IMG/VR virus record: IMGVR_UViG_3300021963_004854
Coordinates: 62,001-126,000 of that record
Length of the DNA stretch: 64,000 nt
Direction: 5' to 3' (one strand)
Origin: a virus
Shown: positions 6,332 to 63,503 of the stretch, one piece after another
How positions within the stretch are numbered: the stretch's first letter is position 1
Layout of the letters: every line of letters begins with the position of its first letter
Program-made: the position numbers and the translations under genes
The notes under the pieces: model-generated
What the model was told of the DNA's origin: nothing
Database searches by the model: none
The model's input: only the letters and a program-made list of their open reading frames with translations

Positions 6332-6721
6332 ATGGCAGCTACTGTTTCTGTCTTAAAATTAACACAAGTTCACGGGGTAGTAAAAGTCCGCGGCACTGGC
6401 GCTGGCACTATTGCTCTTGCTACAACCCTAAAGAAGTCAACTGAATCTGTTAGCACACCTAACGTTCATATTAAGTCAATCTATTATTCACTAGCAAGCG
6501 GTGCCTCTGCAACAATTGTTAGAAATAGCCAGACACTGTGGACATTAAACGATCAAGGTTCTGGATGGCTGGACTTTGCTGGGTGGTCAGACAATGAAGA
6601 AAGCACTTCCAATATTGTTGTTACATTCACTGGCGGTGATGGCACGGTAGTTTTAGAACTTACTAAGGTAGCTGGCTATGGTCCGCAGCAACATCAAGAC
6701 GCAGACGGGGATCTAGGCTAA
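6332..6721 (+). CDS. Putative virion structural protein
   Basis: A 129-aa beta-rich protein with Gly/Ser/Thr-rich strands and no membrane segment or catalytic motif. It sits between the core protein and protease genes inside the head block and ends in the TAATG that starts gp21, so it is translationally coupled to the protease. Related T4-like phages carry a protein of similar size here. I do not recognise a defined family; a head decoration or accessory structural role is only an inference from position. Confidence 0.6.
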   Translation: MAATVSVLKLTQVHGVVKVRGTGAGTIALATTLKKSTESVSTPNVHIKSIYYSLASGASATIVRNSQTLWTLNDQGSGWLDFAGWSDNEESTSNIVVTFTGGDGTVVLELTKVAGYGPQQHQDADGDLG

Positions 6722-7377
6722 TGAAACTTATCACAGAAGTAAACGAACAAGTTCGTTACATCACAGAAGAAAAGAATGGTAAAAAAGCACTCTATATCGA
6801 GGGCGTTTTTCTGCAATCAAATTTAAAGAACCGTAATGGTCGTATGTATCCTGCTGAAATCATGGAGAAAGAAATTTCTCGTTACATGAAAGAAGCGGTT
6901 GAGAACAACAGAGCATTCGGCGAACTAGGACACCCAGATGGTCCATCGATCAATCTGGATCGTGTATCGCATATCATCACAGAACTTCGCCGCGATGGTG
7001 ACAACTGGGTAGGTAAAGCGAAACTCACTGAAACACCAATGGGCAATATCGCTCGTGGTCTAATTGAGTCTGGTGGTCAACTTGGCGTTTCGTCAAGAGG
7101 CCTCGGTACTTTGAAGGAAAACAGAGACGGTGTTCAAGTTGTGCAAGATGACTTCCATCTAGCAACAGCGGCTGATATCGTAGCTGACCCCTCAGCACCA
7201 GATGCTTTCGTTCGTGGCATCATGGAAAATAAAGAATGGGTAGTTGTGAATGGTGTTTGGACCGAACAGCATTGCGATATGTCCAAAAAGTATATTAAGA
7301 AAGCAAGTAAGAAACAACTCGAAGAAGCAAAACTGCATGTCTTTGAACGTTTCTTGCGTCATCTTTCTTCAAAGTAA
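6721..7377 (+). CDS. gp21: Prohead core maturation protease (gp21)
   Basis: Serine-type protease of the T4 gp21 (herpesvirus-assemblin-like) family that degrades the core and trims capsid proteins after Glu in (L/I)xE-(A/G) sites. It has 218 aa, close to T4 gp21 (212). The likely catalytic His lies in GELGHPD (residues 67-73) and the likely nucleophile Ser in GVSSRG (122-127), the two best conserved blocks of the family. The start ATG overlaps the stop of the preceding gene. Candidate substrates in this window include gp22, gp23 and several internal proteins. Confidence 0.94.
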   Translation: MKLITEVNEQVRYITEEKNGKKALYIEGVFLQSNLKNRNGRMYPAEIMEKEISRYMKEAVENNRAFGELGHPDGPSINLDRVSHIITELRRDGDNWVGKAKLTETPMGNIARGLIESGGQLGVSSRGLGTLKENRDGVQVVQDDFHLATAADIVADPSAPDAFVRGIMENKEWVVVNGVWTEQHCDMSKKYIKKASKKQLEEAKLHVFERFLRHLSSK

Positions 7378-19509: not shown

Positions 19510-20115
19510 ATGATTGGTTTTAAACAGTTTCTAAGTGAGTCGCAAGACGGTGCCGGGTTAACTATCTGGGACATTGACGAAACTTTATTTAAGACCACCG
19601 CCCGCGTCCACATCATCAAAGATGGTAAGATTATCAAGACGCTAGGCAACAAACAATATAATACATATCATTTACAGCCGGGTGAGTCCTTCGACTTTAG
19701 AGAGTTTAGGGACGCCCGGCATTTTCAATCTACCAGCGAACCCATCGCAAAAGCGATTCGCAAACTGATAGCAATGCATAAGAATATCAAGGCCAAAGGT
19801 AGCAAGATGGTTGTCATTACAGCCCGCTCCGACTTTGATGACCGTGATATTTTTCTAGACACATTCCGTAAGCAAGGCATTGATATCGATGATATCCATG
19901 TCCATCGTGCTGGCAATCTTGGTGCCATGCCCTCTGCGGCTGCTAAGAAAATCTACATCAAACAATACCTTGACACTGGTAAATATACTCGCGCCCGTCT
20001 CTTTGATGACGCGGTGTCCAATCTCCAGATGTTCAAGGACTTGGCTCATGAATATCCAAACGTGAAGTTTGAGCCTTTCCTGGCTCACGAAGATGGTTCA
20101 ATGACTCGTTTTTAA
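19510..20115 (+). CDS. HAD-superfamily phosphatase
   Basis: A 201-aa HAD hydrolase. Motif I is WDIDET at residues 20-25 (Asp21 nucleophile, Asp23 acid), motif II Thr lies in VVITARSD near 100, and motif IV is LFDDAVSNL near 165. The first residues, MIGFKQFLSES, look like the capsid-targeting tails of T4 internal proteins. No Shine-Dalgarno is present before the ATG; together with promoter spacing this suggests leaderless translation. Substrate unknown; polynucleotide 3'-phosphatase or nucleotide phosphatase are options. Confidence 0.82.
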   Translation: MIGFKQFLSESQDGAGLTIWDIDETLFKTTARVHIIKDGKIIKTLGNKQYNTYHLQPGESFDFREFRDARHFQSTSEPIAKAIRKLIAMHKNIKAKGSKMVVITARSDFDDRDIFLDTFRKQGIDIDDIHVHRAGNLGAMPSAAAKKIYIKQYLDTGKYTRARLFDDAVSNLQMFKDLAHEYPNVKFEPFLAHEDGSMTRF

Positions 20116-34795: not shown

Positions 34796-34872
34796 GCGCC
34801 GTTAGCTCATCTGGATAGAGCGCGAGACTTCTAATCTTGAGGCAGCAGGTTCGAGTCCTGCACGGCGCACCA
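34796..34872 (+). tRNA. tRNA-Arg (anticodon TCT)
   Basis: A 77-base cloverleaf: acceptor GCGCCGT/ACGGCGC, D stem GCTC/GAGC, anticodon stem CGAGA/TCTTG with loop CTTCTAA, T arm GCAGG-TTCGAGT-CCTGC, CCA encoded. Reads AGA, a codon frequent in AT-rich phage genes. Confidence 0.96.
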
Positions 34873-35242: not shown

Positions 35243-35250
35243 TATAAATA
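35243..35250 (+). promoter_or_regulatory. Late promoter TATAAATA before the ligase-like gene
   Basis: Perfect late box 28 bases before the ATG at 35278, consistent with expression of this gene together with head proteins. Confidence 0.78.
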
Positions 35251-35277: not shown

Positions 35278-36411
35278 ATGTTATCACTTACACAATTCAT
35301 TACAGAGGCAACACACACCGGTGGTATTGCTCATATTGAGCATCCCTCTGATAGATCATTTGATAGTCAAGACGCTGCACACCACGCATTGGAAACTCTG
35401 CGTGGTGTTGCGCATGGGAAAACTCCTATCACTCGTAAGATTGATGATAGAATGTCCTTTCATGCTATTCGAACAGCGGACGGTAAGATCGGTGTAAAGT
35501 ATAAGGGTGCAGGTTCTCACTATAACTATTCTGCCTCAGATATTGAAAAGCAGCACGGCCATAAACCATATCTTGTTGGTCCTCTAAAGGCACTTCATGC
35601 CCATCTGGGTAAAGTTCTTCCTAAAAAGTCCGGTGAATATCAGGGTGGATATATGAGTGAACCTTCTGGAAGATCGGAATACTCCTCGCATATCTCACAC
35701 ACTCCTAACACAATTGAATATCGTGCAACTGCGGGTAGTGAAGAAGCGAAGAAGTTGAAGAGGTCTAAGGTCAGTGCCACTATTCATACGGAGCTAAAGG
35801 GTCCAGAAAGAACTGCACATCCTATCACGGACATGTCGCACTTTCAATCACATCCTGATGTTCATATGGTACAACATCTGGTATCAGATGAAGAGCGCAA
35901 ACTTCCTGCCGCTGTTAGGTCAAAAGCCACGGAGCATTTAGATGCCGCCGAGAAATTAATGAAGGGTCATACATATGACCATCTATCTGGTCATGAAATA
36001 CATCTAAGAACTTACATCAATAGAACAGTCACGAGTGGTGAAAAACCTTCTGTTGAAGGATACAGAAAGCATTTACAGGCGGCACACCAGAAACTAATAG
36101 ATGCCGTCAAGACTCCAGCCGCTAAAGAGCGCAAGACTGCTACTATGAATACTCATCTATATCAGGTAGATGCCAACAAAAAACAATTCGAAAGATCATT
36201 TCAAATTCACCACCATCTACAACAGGCAACAAATCATCTTGCTAGAGGATTAGACCGTGCTGGTGGGGGTGGGTTCTCGACACATATTAATGGTGCAGCC
36301 GCTGGCGGCGAAGGCTATGTCGCACATGGTCTTAAAGTTGTTGACCGTGAAGGCTTCTCGAAAGCTAATAGAGAACGTAGTGCAATTCTAAGAGCAAGCA
36401 AGGGTAAATAA
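35278..36411 (+). CDS. Nucleotidyltransferase/ligase-like internal protein (DUF6267-like)
   Basis: A 377-aa protein similar, from memory, to the DUF6267 family of T4-like cyanophages. It shares the order of segments GIAHIEHPSDR (16-26), a ligase motif I-like TRKIDDR with Lys54 and Asp56 (family: VKWDG), a middle block HTPNTIEYRATA (141-152), EGYV at 345-348 (motif IV-like) and LKVVDREGFSKAN (353-365, motif V-like with Lys353). The first 11 residues, MLSLTQFITEA, resemble a T4 capsid-targeting sequence with a perfect gp21 site ITE-A. The motif I glycine is replaced by Asp, so catalysis is uncertain. Its stop overlaps the next gene. Confidence 0.72.
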   Translation: MLSLTQFITEATHTGGIAHIEHPSDRSFDSQDAAHHALETLRGVAHGKTPITRKIDDRMSFHAIRTADGKIGVKYKGAGSHYNYSASDIEKQHGHKPYLVGPLKALHAHLGKVLPKKSGEYQGGYMSEPSGRSEYSSHISHTPNTIEYRATAGSEEAKKLKRSKVSATIHTELKGPERTAHPITDMSHFQSHPDVHMVQHLVSDEERKLPAAVRSKATEHLDAAEKLMKGHTYDHLSGHEIHLRTYINRTVTSGEKPSVEGYRKHLQAAHQKLIDAVKTPAAKERKTATMNTHLYQVDANKKQFERSFQIHHHLQQATNHLARGLDRAGGGGFSTHINGAAAGGEGYVAHGLKVVDREGFSKANRERSAILRASKGK

Positions 36412-37019
36412 TGGCTGACGTTCATCATCATATCACACAAGGTAGAATGAATCCGATTACAGTTGGACATGAAGCCGTTGTTAATCAGGTTCGTAGGGCT
36501 GCTGGTACACATGGGCATACGATTGTTCTTACTGGCACCCATGATGCTAAGAAGAATCCTTTGTCACCGGAACAGAAGTTGAAACATGCTAAGAGGGCAT
36601 TTCCAGGTGCGAATGTTCGTCTACTAGACAAAGAACATCCAACCCTTTTACATCAACTGTCAAGACTTCATAGCGAAGGTGTTACTCACTTACACTTACA
36701 TGTTGGTTCAGACCGCGCACACGAATTCCATGCACTCACACACAAGTATAATGGTAAAGAAGGCCGTCACGGCTATTACAAGTTTAAGAAGATTACCATT
36801 CATACGGTAGGTAAAGAACGTTCGGATGAGGACACTGGTGTAGCAGGTGCTTCCGGCACAAAGATGCGCCAACATGCAGTCGCTGGTAACGAAAAAGAAT
36901 TCCATAAGATGGCACCAAGTGCCATGTCAACTAAGCATAAACACGAACTCTATAAAGATGTTCGCCGTGGTATGGGGCTCCATGAAGCAATGTCCTTCAA
37001 AACGTTTTTAGGAGTCTAA
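36411..37019 (+). CDS. Cytidylyltransferase-like (NMNAT-type) nucleotidyltransferase
   Basis: A 202-aa HxGH-superfamily protein. The nucleotide-binding motif is GRMNPITVGH (residues 11-20, the first His replaced by Thr as in some NMNATs) and the second signature is SGTKMR at 148-153, equivalent to ISSTxxR. The C-terminus LHEAMSFKTFLGV contains a gp21-like site (LHE-A, 190-193) followed by an FKTFL tail resembling capsid-targeting peptides, here at the C-terminal end. Coupled to the ligase-like gene by one-base stop/start overlap; the pair recurs in T4-like marine phages. Reaction unknown. Confidence 0.75.
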   Translation: MADVHHHITQGRMNPITVGHEAVVNQVRRAAGTHGHTIVLTGTHDAKKNPLSPEQKLKHAKRAFPGANVRLLDKEHPTLLHQLSRLHSEGVTHLHLHVGSDRAHEFHALTHKYNGKEGRHGYYKFKKITIHTVGKERSDEDTGVAGASGTKMRQHAVAGNEKEFHKMAPSAMSTKHKHELYKDVRRGMGLHEAMSFKTFLGV

Positions 37020-38682: not shown

Positions 38683-41292
38683 ATGAAGAATGATCCTTGC
38701 TGGAAAGGCTATGAAATGGTTGGCAAAAAGAAGAAGGGTGGTAAAGAAGTCCCTAACTGTGTGCCTGTGAAAGAAGCCGCTAAAGCTATTATTGAAAAAG
38801 CAAAAGCCAAGTCTAAGAAAGACTGGACCGGGGCTAAGGTTAGTAAAGACCGCTTCATTCTCCCAGAAGAAAGTCACGACAACTGCGGCACTCCTGATTG
38901 CTGTGGCACATGCGACACGGCAGTAACAGAAGCCCGTGGCTCGGACTACACTTTGTATCACAAGTCATACACCGATGCAATCAATCACGCTCTTTCACAC
39001 CACGAAAAGTCGGGTCTAAAAGTTTCAGAAGATGACCGCTTCCAACATGTTAGTGTAGGTTCGAAGAAGCCAAGTGAAGGTAATACAACCTCGCTTCATA
39101 TTCCAGCCACTCATTCAAATGGTAAGAAGCATGTTCTCCATGTTCAAGTATTCAACAAGGGCGGAACTCATCCTTACGAACTAAACACTTACTCAAGTGG
39201 TATGGGTCGTAGCGTAAAAGAAGAAGCCGAACTTGAAGAAGGCTATGGTATGTGGAAGGTAGAGTTTCCTAAGCAGCATGTAGGTAAGCCAGTTGCCGCT
39301 GGCTCTGTGCATGTTAAGGCTCAGAACACCGCCCATGCCCATAAAGTAGCGGCAAAGAGAGTGGGTGTTGACCACAAGGTATTCAAGTCTAAGGTAACTA
39401 AGTCTTCTATTCTTCCTGAAGAACTAGAAGATATTAATGAAATGGGTGGCGACCAACATTATGGCGACACTAAGGGCGCATGGTCTGCTGGTGCAAAAGC
39501 AACTCCTGTAAAAGCAAAGAAACTTACTGACTTTGCTCTAAAGGGATTAGAAAAAGAATTAAAAGCTACCCGTCAAACAAGCAAGTCTGTGGCTGATGCC
39601 AAGAAAAAGTATGGCGTCAAGGAAGAAATCGAAGATATCATGGAACGTGGTGAAGACTCTAAGGGTCACTACCGCGCAACAGAAGATGGTGCTGGTTTAA
39701 CTCGTAAGGGTGCCAAGGCCATGGGTATTAAGACCGCCGTTACAACTCCTCCTAGTAAGCTAGATCCAAAAGGCGAAGCTGCAGGTCGTCGCAAATCATT
39801 CTGCGCCCGTATGGGTGGCATGAAAGGTCCTATGAAGGATGAGAAGGGACGCCCAACTCGCAAAGCTATGTCACTTCGTCGCTGGAATTGCAACGAAGCA
39901 GCATTCGATGCCGAATCGAAAATGCATGATGCTCACTACGAAAAGCAAACGGATCAAGTAAAGAATGCACTTGATAATTATGCTCGTCGTGGAATGACAT
40001 ATAAACAAGCATATAATAAGATTCGTCATAGTAACACTCATACTTTGCGTAATCAAATCACTGCGATGCATGAAGAAACACAACTAGACGAAGTTCTGGG
40101 TAAAGAAAACGAATGGGGTCGCCCAGAACTTCGTAAGAAGTTTGCTGCTATCACACCTGGACAAGAGGGTATGACAGCCGATGAGATTCCTGAAATGAAT
40201 CCATTTTCTGGTGATGCTATCCATGAAGGTGGTCTATGGGATAACATTCATGCAAAGCGTAAGCGTATCAAAGCTGGTTCGGGTGAACGTATGCGTAAGC
40301 CCGGTTCAGAAGGTGCACCTACCGATGCAGACTTTAATAATTCTAGAAACGAAGAAACTATCAATGAAATCTCGGCCCTAGGTGCCAAGAAGCGTTCTGA
40401 ATTTGCTGCCAAACTACAAAAGACACTTGCCGACCCGAAAAAAATCGCAAAGGCCAAGAAAGAAATTGCAAAGAAAAAGGCAGTCCAGAAAGCAGAAGAA
40501 CCTAAGCACCTCGTTATGCAACTTCGCAAAGCATCTTCGATTGGCTCCAAGGTTAAGTTCTATGATGGCTCAGAACATCATGTAGCACCTAACCATGTAG
40601 AAAAGTTCAATGATCGTTATCATTCATTGAAGTCTTCTATCGAAAAGGAAAGCCTAGTCAAGAGAGCGCATAAGTCACATGCAGATTTCATGAGAGCAAT
40701 CTCAGAAGAAACTGAAATGGGCCAGCCAATGGCGCCTTGCACATGCGATATTACTCCTGCTAATTATCCAACACCGTCGCAACTATCACCTGAACCGCAA
40801 CTCGGTGATATGAATAGTGATGGTATGACAAATGAGTGGGACGAAGCTGTAATTGAGGCAGAAGTTACACATGAAATTGAAACATCCGATTGGGATGAAT
40901 TACAGAAGTATTATGACAGCGAACAAGAAGACGATGATGAGGAATCAGAATCGATTGATGAAGCTATCACACCACAAGGTCGCCTCAAGAAAAGATTTGC
41001 CGCAATGCGTAACAAGACACGCCGTAATATGGCAAAGAATATGGCACTAAAGCGGATTGCAACACCAGACCGTATCAAGTCGCGTTCTATTCGCGCCGCT
41101 CGTAGAATGGTTTATAAGCGCATTCTTCGTAACCGCGATCCATCTTCTGTATCCCCAGCCGAAAAGGCACGTTTGGAAGATCAAGTAAAGCGCATGGCTC
41201 CTATGGTATCTAGAATTTCTATGAGACTTCAACAGTCTGAAAGAAAGCGTGATATGATGCGCGTTCAAAACGCTAGAACGAGAAAGAAATAA
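38683..41292 (+). CDS. Mosaic basic internal head protein, probable gp21 polyprotein
   Basis: An 869-aa lysine- and arginine-rich protein built from modules that I recall as parts of different T4-like phage proteins. They are PCWKGYEMVGKKKKGGKEVP..C (5-26), a Cys-rich CGTPDCCGTCD (68-77), GYGMWKVEFP.. (187-232), a GRRKSFCARMGGMKG block (368-382), GRPELRKKFAAITPGQ (479-494), an Ala/Lys helix (570-605) and a very basic C-terminal domain (762-869). Sequences matching the gp21 consensus occur at LEE-G (186/187), IHE-G (515/516) and IDE-A (760/761), each at a module edge. Expression from a late promoter fits a packaged DNA-binding protein. No enzymatic motif seen. Confidence 0.7.
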   Translation: MKNDPCWKGYEMVGKKKKGGKEVPNCVPVKEAAKAIIEKAKAKSKKDWTGAKVSKDRFILPEESHDNCGTPDCCGTCDTAVTEARGSDYTLYHKSYTDAINHALSHHEKSGLKVSEDDRFQHVSVGSKKPSEGNTTSLHIPATHSNGKKHVLHVQVFNKGGTHPYELNTYSSGMGRSVKEEAELEEGYGMWKVEFPKQHVGKPVAAGSVHVKAQNTAHAHKVAAKRVGVDHKVFKSKVTKSSILPEELEDINEMGGDQHYGDTKGAWSAGAKATPVKAKKLTDFALKGLEKELKATRQTSKSVADAKKKYGVKEEIEDIMERGEDSKGHYRATEDGAGLTRKGAKAMGIKTAVTTPPSKLDPKGEAAGRRKSFCARMGGMKGPMKDEKGRPTRKAMSLRRWNCNEAAFDAESKMHDAHYEKQTDQVKNALDNYARRGMTYKQAYNKIRHSNTHTLRNQITAMHEETQLDEVLGKENEWGRPELRKKFAAITPGQEGMTADEIPEMNPFSGDAIHEGGLWDNIHAKRKRIKAGSGERMRKPGSEGAPTDADFNNSRNEETINEISALGAKKRSEFAAKLQKTLADPKKIAKAKKEIAKKKAVQKAEEPKHLVMQLRKASSIGSKVKFYDGSEHHVAPNHVEKFNDRYHSLKSSIEKESLVKRAHKSHADFMRAISEETEMGQPMAPCTCDITPANYPTPSQLSPEPQLGDMNSDGMTNEWDEAVIEAEVTHEIETSDWDELQKYYDSEQEDDDEESESIDEAITPQGRLKKRFAAMRNKTRRNMAKNMALKRIATPDRIKSRSIRAARRMVYKRILRNRDPSSVSPAEKARLEDQVKRMAPMVSRISMRLQQSERKRDMMRVQNARTRKK

Positions 41293-43902: not shown

Positions 43903-44355
43903 ATGGCAGATAGCAAAGTAACCTCGATGCAACCAGCGACCGACGCGGCGTCGGCTGATGTGTTGTATCTAGTGAAACCAAATACAAGTCCATATGATCA
44001 TAAGATTACTATTGCTAATCTGTTCGGGGGCATTCCTGTTCCCGTAGTCCTAGAAGACAAACTAATATTGAGTGGCACTCCGCAGACTTTATCCTCTGCG
44101 GGTGCCATTTCAATCACTTCGACTGTTACAAAGATTACATCACCTGATAATAATGGCACACTTACCATTGCTGACGGCGTTGACGGACAAATCAAAACAA
44201 TTATTATGGTATCAAATTCGGCTGGTCATACACTAAGTATTACATCCAATATCGGTCACTCAAGTATTGTTTTTAATAGCGCAGGAGATACCGCGACACT
44301 TATGTTCCAAGGAACAGTCTGGTATTTCATTGGGGGAACGGCGACAGTATCATAA
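43903..44355 (+). CDS. Putative virion structural protein
   Basis: A 150-aa beta-rich protein, Thr/Ser/Ile-rich throughout, ending FQGTVWYFIGGTATVS. The last 100 residues resemble the beta domain at the tip of many phage fibre or decoration proteins (TLTIADGVDGQIKTIIMV...GHTLSITSNIG...TLMFQGTVWYF). It follows the repeat-containing structural protein by 6 bases and is probably expressed with it. Confidence 0.65.
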   Translation: MADSKVTSMQPATDAASADVLYLVKPNTSPYDHKITIANLFGGIPVPVVLEDKLILSGTPQTLSSAGAISITSTVTKITSPDNNGTLTIADGVDGQIKTIIMVSNSAGHTLSITSNIGHSSIVFNSAGDTATLMFQGTVWYFIGGTATVS

Positions 44356-44356
44356 T

Positions 44357-44719
44357 ATGTTTGAATTAAATGATGATAATTTTTTGATCTTTGCTATTAA
44401 GAACTATGACAACCGGGGATGCCTTGGTATGTCAGACTTAGAAGAAGATTTAAAACGATTTAAATATATCAAACGATTATTTCGTAGATATGAAACAACA
44501 GATGTTTTAAGTGAAAGATTAATACTCAATCACTTAATAGTTTTATACAATGTATTTGGTAATGACACCTCTTTGATGCTTTTATATAAAGTAGAAAAGA
44601 AGTATTGGTCATATTTAAAGACTTTTCTGGTCTATCTAAATAGGATGACCATGGATGATATACCAGATATATCTTTAGATTTGAATGTTGCAGCCGCTCT
44701 AAGGAAAATTAATGTCTAG
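44357..44719 (+). CDS. Conserved T4-like protein (DUF7207-like)
   Basis: A 120-aa helical protein matching, from memory, a family common in T4-like cyanophages: FELNDDNFLIFAIKNYDN, then EDLKRFKYIKRLFRRYE and RLILNHLIVLYNVFG. ATG 44357 is preferred over an upstream in-frame ATG at 44267, which lies inside the preceding gene. It ends overlapping the next gene (8 bases), and the two are neighbours in related phages. Function unknown. Confidence 0.75.
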   Translation: MFELNDDNFLIFAIKNYDNRGCLGMSDLEEDLKRFKYIKRLFRRYETTDVLSERLILNHLIVLYNVFGNDTSLMLLYKVEKKYWSYLKTFLVYLNRMTMDDIPDISLDLNVAAALRKINV

Positions 44720-60382: not shown

Positions 60383-61263
60383 TGATAGTGGTAGACTTTA
60401 ACCAAGTTGCAATTAGTAACATGATGGCTGAACTTGGTGGTCGTCGCGATGTGGAGGTCAATCTTCCTCTCATTCGTCATATGATTATCAATTCAATTCG
60501 TTCATATAAGCGTAAGTTCGGTGCAGAATTTGGCGATATCATCATTGCATGTGATAATCGAAACTACTGGCGCCGCCAGTTCTTCCCTAACTACAAGGCT
60601 AATCGTAAGAAAAGCCGCGCAGACAGTGGCTTTGACTGGAATTCAATCTTCGAAGCCCTGCATCAGGTCCGTGCCGAGTTGCAAGAGCATTTTCCATATC
60701 CTGTGATTGATGTTGATGGCGCAGAAGCAGATGATGTAATCGCCGCGCTTGCAGAATATAGTCAGACTTCGAATGTTGATGGCCTTATTCCTAGTGCAGA
60801 GCCTTTCCTCGTTCTCTCTGGCGACCATGACTTCAATCAGTTGCAGAAGTGGTCCAACGTAAAGCAGTATGCACCAGTGCAGAAGAAGTTTGTTAAGCTG
60901 ACTGATAAGCCAGAAGTTGTTCTGATGGAACACATTATCACCGGCGATAAGGGCGATGGTGTTCCTAACATCCTGTCAGATGATGATACGTTTGTCACTG
61001 GTTCACGCCAGCGTCCCATGAAGAAGGATAAGGTTGCAGAGTGGAAGCACCAGAAGCCAGAAGACTTCATCACCAGTGATGAAATGTGGCGTAACTTCCA
61101 ACGCAATCGTGAACTGGTTGACTTGTCGCGCATTCCCCAAGATATCAAGGATGCAGTTATTGATAGTTACGAGAAGCAAAAGGGTGGTGACCGCAGTGGT
61201 CTCCTGAATTACTTCATTGCGAATCGTATGAAGCAGATGATTGAGTTGATCGATGAATTTTAA
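60382..61263 (+). CDS. rnh: RNase H / 5'-3' exonuclease (T4 Rnh type)
   Basis: FEN-1-family nuclease that removes RNA primers from lagging strands. Metal-binding positions are Asp4 (VVDFNQV), IIIACDNRNYWRR near 53, VDGAEADDVIAALAEY near 112 (three acids), LSGDHDFNQL near 146 and GDKGDGVPNI near 190. Its 293 aa match T4 RNase H (305). It overlaps the cytidylyltransferase gene by 11 bases. Confidence 0.94.
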   Translation: MIVVDFNQVAISNMMAELGGRRDVEVNLPLIRHMIINSIRSYKRKFGAEFGDIIIACDNRNYWRRQFFPNYKANRKKSRADSGFDWNSIFEALHQVRAELQEHFPYPVIDVDGAEADDVIAALAEYSQTSNVDGLIPSAEPFLVLSGDHDFNQLQKWSNVKQYAPVQKKFVKLTDKPEVVLMEHIITGDKGDGVPNILSDDDTFVTGSRQRPMKKDKVAEWKHQKPEDFITSDEMWRNFQRNRELVDLSRIPQDIKDAVIDSYEKQKGGDRSGLLNYFIANRMKQMIELIDEF

Positions 61264-61693
61264 TAGTTCCACTGAAAGAGTAGGCATTACAGCCAGTTGC
61301 TTTGACCTGTTCCACGCGGGTCATGTTCTTATGCTACAGGAAGCTAAAGAACAGTGCGACCGATTGGTAGTAGCATTACAGACTGACCCAACGATTGACC
61401 GACCAGAGAAGAACAAGCCCGTTCAATCTCTGGTAGAACGGTATATTCAGTTGCAAGCATGTAAGTATGTGGACGAAATCATTCCATACACGACAGAAGA
61501 AGACTTGCTAAATATACTACAATGTTATGACTGGGATGTTCGCATTATTGGCGAAGATTATTACAATAAGCGATTTACTGGTGACGAACTAGGAATCGAA
61601 GTTTATTACAATAGTCGCAGGCATAGCTTTAGCACTACTGAATTGAGAAGGAGAATTGGCGATGGCAACAAGATTACCACCAAAGAAGTTTAA
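61253..61693 (+). CDS. TagD/RfaE-like cytidylyltransferase
   Basis: A 146-aa nucleotidyltransferase of the HxGH superfamily: FDLFHAGHVLML with His21 and His24, WDVRIIGEDYY in the middle and FSTTELRRRI near residue 130 (equivalent of the RTxGISTT signature). The closest functional analogues are glycerol-3-phosphate cytidylyltransferase and the RfaE adenylyltransferase, so it may make a CDP- or ADP-activated sugar alcohol. Second HxGH protein in the genome beside that at 36411, but without capsid-targeting tails. Confidence 0.85.
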   Translation: MNFNSSTERVGITASCFDLFHAGHVLMLQEAKEQCDRLVVALQTDPTIDRPEKNKPVQSLVERYIQLQACKYVDEIIPYTTEEDLLNILQCYDWDVRIIGEDYYNKRFTGDELGIEVYYNSRRHSFSTTELRRRIGDGNKITTKEV

Positions 61694-63258: not shown

Positions 63259-63346
63259 GGAAGCGTGGGTGAGTGGTTGAAACCTACAGTCTTGAAAACT
63301 GTCGTACCGCAAGGTACCGTGGGTTCGAATCCCACCGCTTCCTCCA
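63259..63346 (+). tRNA. tRNA-Ser (anticodon TGA)
   Basis: An 88-base class II tRNA: acceptor GGAAGCG/CGCTTCC, anticodon stem ACAGT/ACTGT with loop CTTGAAA, extra arm around GTACC-GCAA-GGTAC, T arm GTGGG-TTCGAAT-CCCAC, encoded CCA. Confidence 0.96.
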
Positions 63347-63350
63347 GTTT

Positions 63351-63426
63351 GGGGATGTAGTCCAATGGCAGAGACAGAGGACTTAAAATCCTTCCAGTGT
63401 GGGTTCGAGTCCCACCATCCCTACCA
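63351..63426 (+). tRNA. tRNA with anticodon TAA (Leu) lacking a long variable arm
   Basis: A 76-base cloverleaf: acceptor GGGGATG/CATCCCT (one G-U), D stem GTC/GAC, anticodon stem GAGGA/TCCTT with loop CTTAAAA, 5-base variable loop, T arm GTGGG-TTCGAGT-CCCAC, discriminator A, encoded CCA. The anticodon reads UUA, but bacterial tRNA-Leu normally has a class II extra arm, so charging identity is unproven. Confidence 0.9.
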
Positions 63427-63427
63427 A

Positions 63428-63503
63428 TGCCCCTTGGTGTAATTGGCAACACGTCGGATTTTGATTCCGAAAAGTCCAGGTTCGAGCCCTGGAGGGGCAT
63501 CCA
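63428..63503 (+). tRNA. tRNA-Gln (anticodon TTG)
   Basis: A 76-base cloverleaf: acceptor TGCCCCT/AGGGGCA, anticodon stem TCGGA/TCCGA with loop TTTTGAT, T arm CCAGG-TTCGAGC-CCTGG, encoded CCA. Starts two bases after the previous tRNA, so the three form one transcript. Confidence 0.95.

What the first reader, a model, noticed from the sequence alone, without database searches (positions are those of the whole stretch)
35278..37019. Ligase-like and NMNAT-like pair with capsid-targeting-type tails
Two coupled late genes encode a DUF6267-like protein with ligase-type motifs and an HxGH nucleotidyltransferase. The first begins with FITE-A and the second ends with LHE-A followed by FKTFL, both resembling the peptides that send T4 internal proteins into the prohead for gp21 trimming. 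The pair may be an enzymatic payload injected with DNA, in the manner of T4 Alt, and able to modify host RNA, NAD or protein at once on entry. A system of this kind is, to my knowledge, undescribed.
Basis: partly seen in the sequence, partly recalled or inferred. Interest (0 to 1): 0.76.

Follow-up and report, generated by a model that had tools for sequence, protein, structure and literature searches.

The report
Capsid-tagged ligase-like and NMNAT-like enzymes
Two neighbouring late genes of a T4-like phage encode a ligase-like and an NMNAT-like enzyme, each with a short end tag that in T4 sends proteins into the new virus head, so both are probably packaged and injected with the DNA.

Summary
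35278-36411 is a full-length DUF6267 protein and 36411-37019 an NMNAT/PPAT-type nucleotidyltransferase. They overlap by one base behind a T4-type late promoter (TATAAATA). The first starts MLSLTQFITE|A, in register with the T4 IPII/IPIII capsid-targeting sequence MKTYQEFIAE|A. The second ends LHE|AMSFKTFLGV.

The tags are conserved well beyond chance. When the two proteins are fused, only the N-terminal tag is present. When they are split, the NMNAT carries a tag at one end, never both. The C-terminal version matches the conserved C-tail of this phage group's own prohead protease. A third tagged protein in the genome, a HAD phosphatase (19510-20115), forms an operon with the pair in other phages. 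Published mass spectrometry found tagged NMNATs in CsCl-purified virions of three cyanophages. DUF6267 has not been seen in virions.

AlphaFold models are confident. The NMNAT fold is clear. DUF6267 is ligase-like, but weakly by fold score (best PDB E 0.056), and its motif I is KIDD instead of KxDG.

Packaging is likely. What the enzymes do after entry is inferred; RNA or nucleic-acid end repair is my leading guess. NMNATs in virions were already reported, so 'undescribed' is only partly right.

The parts
35243..35250 (+). T4-type late promoter TATAAATA, 28 nt before the DUF6267 start codon
   Evidence: Exact match; 8 in the window, all on the + strand, the others mostly just upstream of sheath, scaffold, major capsid and other genes
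35278..36411 (+). DUF6267 protein (377 aa), ligase-like fold with an inserted helical domain
   Evidence: Pfam PF19782 5.5e-35; AlphaFold mean pLDDT 89.5, pTM 0.84; PDB Foldseek list led by DNA and RNA ligases, best E 0.056
35278..35307 (+). N-terminal capsid-targeting-like tag MLSLTQFITE, predicted cut E10|A11
   Evidence: Same length and same residues 7, 8, 10 and 11 as T4 IPII/IPIII MKTYQEFIAE|A; residues 1-18 pLDDT <50; conserved in relatives
35437..35448 (+). Motif I K54-I-D-D (KxDG in distant relatives)
   Evidence: K54 and D56 invariant in 31 aligned members; KxDD goes with [YW]QGG and KxDG with [YF]QGD, no mixed case
36310..36336 (+). Motif IV-like E345-G346-x-V and motif V-like K353
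   Evidence: Invariant columns of alignment A1
36411..37019 (+). NMNAT/PPAT-type nucleotidyltransferase (202 aa)
   Evidence: PHROG 3041 9e-47; AlphaFold mean pLDDT 89.8; PDB Foldseek PPAT, NadD, NadM, NMNAT, best E 2e-5, 59 chains at E <= 0.001
36459..36470 (+). Active-site motif T17-V-G-H20 in GRMNPITVGH
   Evidence: Alignment A2: R12, P15, G19, H20 invariant
36978..37016 (+). C-terminal tag LHE|AMSFKTFLGV, predicted cut E192|A193
   Evidence: Conserved in close relatives (LHEAxSFKxFLG); low model confidence at this end; resembles the C-tail of the prohead protease
19510..20115 (+). Third tagged protein: HAD phosphatase, MIGFKQFLSE|S
   Evidence: PHROG 415 'polynucleotide kinase' 1.4e-13; tag conserved in most relatives; operon with DUF6267 and NMNAT in other phages
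6721..7377 (+). gp21-like prohead protease, C-tail LEEAKLHVFERFLRHLSSK
   Evidence: PHROG 207 2e-80; 39% identity with T4 gp21 over 147 aa; C-tail largely conserved in relatives

Best explanation
The two genes encode a two-subunit enzyme that is packed into the phage head and injected with the DNA. Made late, each subunit is drawn into the prohead core by a short helix (FxxF[IL]) at one of its ends. The gp21-like protease then cuts at the adjoining LxE or IxE and removes ten residues: the first ten of DUF6267 and the last ten of the NMNAT-like protein. The freed enzymes stay in the head and enter the next cell with the genome. The DUF6267 subunit is a ligase-like covalent nucleotidyltransferase and its partner an NMNAT-like nucleotidyltransferase. 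Together with a co-packaged HAD phosphatase and, in other phages, a fused P-loop kinase, they most likely mend or cap nucleic-acid ends, probably RNA broken by host defence, at the moment of entry. Shown by sequence or models: genes, folds, tags, conservation, operon, late promoter. Inferred: packaging here (about 0.85), injection, trimming, joint action, and RNA-end repair as the function (about 0.35).
For: Tag equals the T4 capsid-targeting sequence at residues 7, 8, 10 and 11; relatives also have the aromatic residue 4; in T4 residues 4 and 7 govern targeting and 8 and 10 processing (PMC9026906). N-tag on 35/48 DUF6267 and 13/14 fusions against 10% of controls. In short-tailed NMNATs and fusions N-tag and C-tag never coincide: 17 N only, 5 C only, 4 neither, Fisher p 0.002, not corrected for relatedness. 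C-tag resembles the conserved C-tail of the prohead protease, and T4 Alt is itself trimmed at its C-end at LTE (PMC5694885). The three NMNATs reported in purified cyanophage virions that I could read start with the tag: MKSFLQFLKE|A, MKNFSSFLTE|A, MRFRQFIIE|A. In S-CREM2 the only three annotated genes with the strict tag are its three virion-detected 'regulatory' proteins. Late promoter. Fusion of the two proteins in many phages. HAD-DUF6267-NMNAT operons and NMNAT-kinase fusions. Ligases lead the fold list.
Against: No virion proteomics for this phage or for any DUF6267 protein. Detection in CsCl-purified cyanophage samples could be carry-over, as those authors say. In the three cyanophages 5 of 8 strictly tagged proteins were detected, not all (expected 1.5, p 0.007). 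The ligase assignment rests on weak Foldseek scores and three motifs; the window's clade lost the motif I glycine and the motif III acid. Some relatives (S-SZBM1_141, S-MbCM7) have an untagged DUF6267 protein. Function after entry is untested.
Confidence: 0.6

Rival explanations
1. Packaged as above, but the job is to keep or rebuild NAD+ in the new host, for example against NAD-depleting defences. The NMNAT-like subunit makes NAD+ from NMN and ATP and the ligase-like subunit is an accessory.
For: Clear NMNAT/PPAT fold; authors of the virion studies proposed NAD control; phage NAD+ rebuilding is a known counter-defence (NARP1, PMC12774641).
Against: Partner is DUF6267, not a phosphoribosyltransferase; substrate cannot be told from sequence (PPAT and NMNAT score alike); the fused kinase matches Zeta toxin and AAA_33 families, with no NadR-type kinase model among the matches; companion HAD phosphatase is unexplained.
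Confidence: 0.22
2. The proteins enter the prohead core but serve assembly, as scaffold-like core parts, and have no role after injection.
For: The tag is a core-binding signal; T4 core proteins are tagged, cut and partly lost (PMC9026906).
Against: Likely catalytic residues of both enzymes are conserved across members only 31-37% identical to the window proteins, as expected of working enzymes.
Confidence: 0.1
3. Ordinary intracellular enzymes; the tag-like ends are chance or serve something else, and virion detection in relatives is carry-over.
For: Abundant late proteins can stick to particles; untagged members exist (S-SZBM1_141, S-MbCM7).
Against: Tag enrichment, register with T4, one tag per chain, same tag on unrelated folds (HAD, SAM hydrolase, kinase), match with the protease C-tail. 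In S-SZBM1 the tagged NMNAT was detected and the untagged DUF6267 protein beside it was not (one case).
Confidence: 0.1
4. Alt-like payload that transfers AMP or another nucleotide to host proteins.
For: T4 Alt precedent of an injected, gp21-trimmed transferase; both subunits resemble nucleotidyltransferase folds.
Against: Neither fold family is known chiefly for protein modification; no similarity to AMPylators or ADP-ribosyltransferases in the family searches.
Confidence: 0.07

Closest known systems
T4 internal proteins IPI-IPIII and Alt (capsid-targeting sequence, gp21 trimming, injection)
   Same: Ten-residue N-terminal tag with the same key positions, gp21-like protease, late promoter
   Different: Different proteins; here the second subunit carries the tag at its C-end, next to LxE, like the prohead protease itself
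NMNAT-like / cytidylyltransferase proteins in cyanophage virions (S-SCSM1, S-CREM2, S-SZBM1, S-CBWM1)
   Same: Same family (38% identity over 93% of the protein for S-SZBM1); the three checked here (not S-CBWM1) are detected in virions and carry the N-tag
   Different: Published as lone enzymes without a targeting explanation; the DUF6267 neighbour of S-SZBM1 is not in its virion list
T4 Pnkp plus RNA ligase repair of host-cleaved tRNA
   Same: Ligase-like, phosphatase and (in relatives) kinase parts occur together
   Different: DUF6267 is not in the known RNA ligase families; T4 makes its enzymes after infection instead of bringing them; the NMNAT part has no counterpart
NARP1 NAD+ reconstitution (Adps, Namat)
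   Same: Phage NAD-type chemistry as possible counter-defence
   Different: Different enzymes; no capsid tag mentioned in the passages read

Membership tests
T4-type CTS-bearing internal proteins | N-terminal ~10-residue tag with aromatic/hydrophobic 4 and 7, I/L 8, E 10 | tested here: met
   MLSLTQFITE|A against MKTYQEFIAE|A; residue 4 is L here, F in most relatives. Met for DUF6267; the NMNAT-like protein has the elements at its C-end instead
T4-type CTS-bearing internal proteins | gp21-like prohead protease in the same genome | tested here: met
   Window 6721-7377, PHROG 207 and 39% identity with gp21
T4-type CTS-bearing internal proteins | Late expression | tested here: met
   TATAAATA at 35243-35250; sequence evidence only
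T4-type CTS-bearing internal proteins | Present and trimmed in the virion, ejected into the host | not testable with these tools
   Only relatives of the NMNAT subunit detected in virions in the literature
DUF6267 (PF19782) | Match over the curated cut-off | tested here: met
   121.9 bits against 27
Covalent nucleotidyltransferases (DNA/RNA ligases, capping enzymes) | Ligase fold | tested here: inconclusive
   Foldseek PDB list dominated by ligases but best E 0.056; viral library RNA ligase E 1.2e-3
Covalent nucleotidyltransferases (DNA/RNA ligases, capping enzymes) | KxDG motif I | tested here: not met
   KIDD in the window protein and its clade; KxDG in the distant relatives
Covalent nucleotidyltransferases (DNA/RNA ligases, capping enzymes) | Motif IV and V residues (EG, K) | tested here: met
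   E345, G346, K353 invariant; the assignment to motifs IV and V is mine
HIGH-type nucleotidyltransferases (NMNAT, PPAT) | [HT]xGH and SxTxxR-like motifs, Rossmann-type fold | tested here: met
   TVGH, SGTKMR; PPAT/NMNAT structures at E 2e-5 to 1e-3
NMNAT in the strict sense | Makes NAD+ or NaAD | not testable with these tools
   PPAT and NMNAT models score equally weakly
Pnkp/Rnl-type RNA repair | Known RNA ligase family member | tested here: not met
   No PF09414 match in the genome with positive controls; the PF09511 search had no positive control

The most novel reading that the evidence does not exclude
Many environmental T4-like phages bring along a ready-made nucleic-acid repair kit (ligase-like DUF6267, NMNAT-like enzyme, HAD phosphatase, in some a P-loop kinase), sorted into the head by a targeting code that works at either end of a protein: an FxxF[IL] helix beside an LxE cut site, shared with the prohead protease. 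The kit acts before any phage gene is expressed and so undoes RNA- or NAD-directed host defences from time zero.
Probability: 0.25. Interest if true: 0.85.

Novelty: new variant of a known kind. Interest (0 to 1): 0.7.

Why it matters
If right, it explains why NMNAT-like enzymes turn up in cyanophage virions, gives a role to a widespread family of unknown function, and shows that the T4 capsid-targeting signal can be read from sequence in uncultured phages and can sit at the C-terminus. That would make injected phage enzymes predictable from genomes.

Tried and rejected
Sequence searches of DUF6267 against PDB, NCBIfam and PADLOC gave nothing useful; the weak profile match to amyloid-like protein 1 is taken as a helical chance match. 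A first tag count was wrong through a coordinate slip in my script and was replaced. The looser tag pattern occurs in 27% of control ORFs, so the 27 NMNATs that match only it are weak evidence. In one search the one 'KHDSS' entry (L063) is a pattern-matching slip: the alignment shows KYDG there. NadR-like reading (NMNAT plus ribosylnicotinamide kinase) set aside because the fused kinase matches Zeta toxin and AAA_33. No paper names DUF6267. The PA5oct virion paper is not held.

Full report
What is there. The window is bases 62001-126000 of a 171,566-base virus record with T4-type terminase, sheath, tube, portal, prohead protease, scaffold and major capsid protein. At 35278-36411 lies a 377-residue DUF6267 protein and at 36411-37019 a 202-residue cytidylyltransferase-like protein. 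The stop of the first and the start of the second share one base. TATAAATA, the T4 late promoter -10 box, stands 28 bases before the first gene; all eight exact copies in the window are on the + strand, against 3.3 expected on both strands, and others precede the sheath, scaffold and capsid genes.

The two proteins belong together. They are adjacent in IMG/VR relatives and fused into one chain of about 600 residues in many others. PHROG 455 spans both. In T4-like cyanophages such as S-MbCM7 and S-SZBM1 they are neighbours too.

The tags. T4 IPII and IPIII begin MKTYQEFIAE|A. T4 genetics found residues 4 and 7 important for targeting and 8 and 10 for processing, with gp21 cutting after L/I-x-E (PMC9026906). 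The DUF6267 protein begins MLSLTQFITE|A. In 48 non-redundant relatives 35 have the strict pattern and 7 a looser one; 13 of 14 fusions have the strict one; 865 other ORFs of the same loci have it in 10%, and many of those look like tagged proteins themselves. NMNATs of more distant phages carry the tag at the N-terminus; those close to the window carry LHE|AxSFKxFLG at the C-terminus. Among chains that end at the NMNAT domain, 17 have only an N-tag, 5 only a C-tag, 4 neither and none both. These counts are not independent, because the C-tagged ones are related. In the models the tagged ends are the low-confidence ends: residues 1-18 below 50, and the last dozen of the partner near 53-60.

A C-terminal signal with a precedent. 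A scan of the whole record for a terminal LxE...FxxF[LI] found two proteins only: this one and the prohead protease, which ends LEEAKLHVFERFLRHLSSK. That tail is largely conserved in relatives of the protease at 62-97% identity. S-SCSM1 shows the same: its protease and a 69-residue protein labelled virion protein, ending FKEFLEYIE. T4 Alt is cut near its C-end at LTE (PMC5694885). I read this as one core-binding helix that can be placed at either end, next to a cut site that removes it; T4 gp21 itself does not show the FxxFL pattern at its C-end.

Virion evidence in relatives. NMNAT-like proteins were found by mass spectrometry in CsCl-purified S-SCSM1 (PMC9602691), S-CREM2 (PMC10665884) and S-SZBM1 (PMC9146016). 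All three begin with the tag. In S-CREM2 only three annotated genes have the strict tag, and they are the SAM hydrolase, kinase and cytidylyltransferase listed as virion regulatory proteins. Over the three phages 5 of 8 strictly tagged annotated genes were detected, 1.5 expected (p 0.007; the S-SCSM1 base rate uses the 48 labels I counted in the record, the paper says 45). In S-SZBM1 the DUF6267 protein has no tag and is not in the list, while the tagged partner is. No DUF6267 protein has been shown in a virion in the papers read, and the authors themselves allow for carry-over.

Folds. The NMNAT-like model (pLDDT 89.8) matches phosphopantetheine and nicotinate/nicotinamide nucleotide adenylyltransferases, 59 chains at E <= 0.001; its motif is TVGH. 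The DUF6267 model (pLDDT 89.5, pTM 0.84) gives no PDB match at E <= 0.001, but DNA ligase IV, T4 RNA ligase 1, DNA ligase 1, Naegleria RNA ligase and NAD-dependent ligases dominate the list, and the first viral match named as something other than a DUF6267-type or uncharacterised protein is an RNA ligase at 1.2e-3. K54, D56, E345, G346 and K353 are invariant, which fits motifs I, IV and V of that superfamily. The window's clade has KxDD with [YW]QGG; all others with a readable motif III have KxDG with [YF]QGD; no mixed case was seen. This looks like one event with an acid moved from one motif to the other; whether catalysis survives is unknown.

A third member. The only other long ORF of the record with a convincing strict tag is a HAD phosphatase at 19510-20115, whose tag is conserved in most relatives. 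In L063, L077, L236, L238, L239, L241 and before the fusions in L198, L222 and L073 it lies beside DUF6267 and NMNAT genes, usually with its own tag. In many phages the NMNAT is fused to a P-loop kinase with Zeta-toxin, AAA_33 and weak polynucleotide-kinase matches. Phosphatase, kinase and ligase-like parts recall T4 Pnkp and RNA ligase, which is why I lean to end repair; this is inference. The record has a separate DNA ligase, a separate AAA_33 kinase and no PF09414 RNA ligase.

Verdict. Observation confirmed with two motif corrections. Packaging is likely, the enzymatic role open, the claim of complete novelty too strong.

Noticed in passing
window 6721-7377: The gp21-like prohead protease has a conserved C-tail LEEAK..VFE.FL that resembles the C-terminal tag of the NMNAT-like protein.
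   Followed up: yes
window 19510-20115: HAD phosphatase with a T4-like capsid-targeting tag MIGFKQFLSE|S, in an operon with DUF6267 and NMNAT genes in other phages.
   Followed up: partly
window 38683-41292: 869-residue protein behind a late promoter, with DUF6321 and many LxE/IxE sites, possibly a head polyprotein cut by the prohead protease.
   Followed up: no
window 61253-61693: A second nucleotidyltransferase of the same superfamily, like heptose 1-phosphate adenylyltransferase (PHROG 7878), without a tag.
   Followed up: no
L478 (S-SZBM1 122311-122628) and L157 (S-SCSM1 44215-44535): Homologous small proteins starting MK[ST]FK[SQ]F[LM]SESVNISGDFNGNLY, strictly tagged but not reported in the virions.
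   Followed up: no
window 34796-34872 and 63259-63503: tRNA genes for Arg(tct), just upstream of the pair's region, and for Ser, Leu and Gln.
   Followed up: no
L065 5944-8772 and similar loci: NMNAT-like domain fused to a P-loop kinase of Zeta-toxin/AAA_33 type in chains of up to 942 residues.
   Followed up: partly
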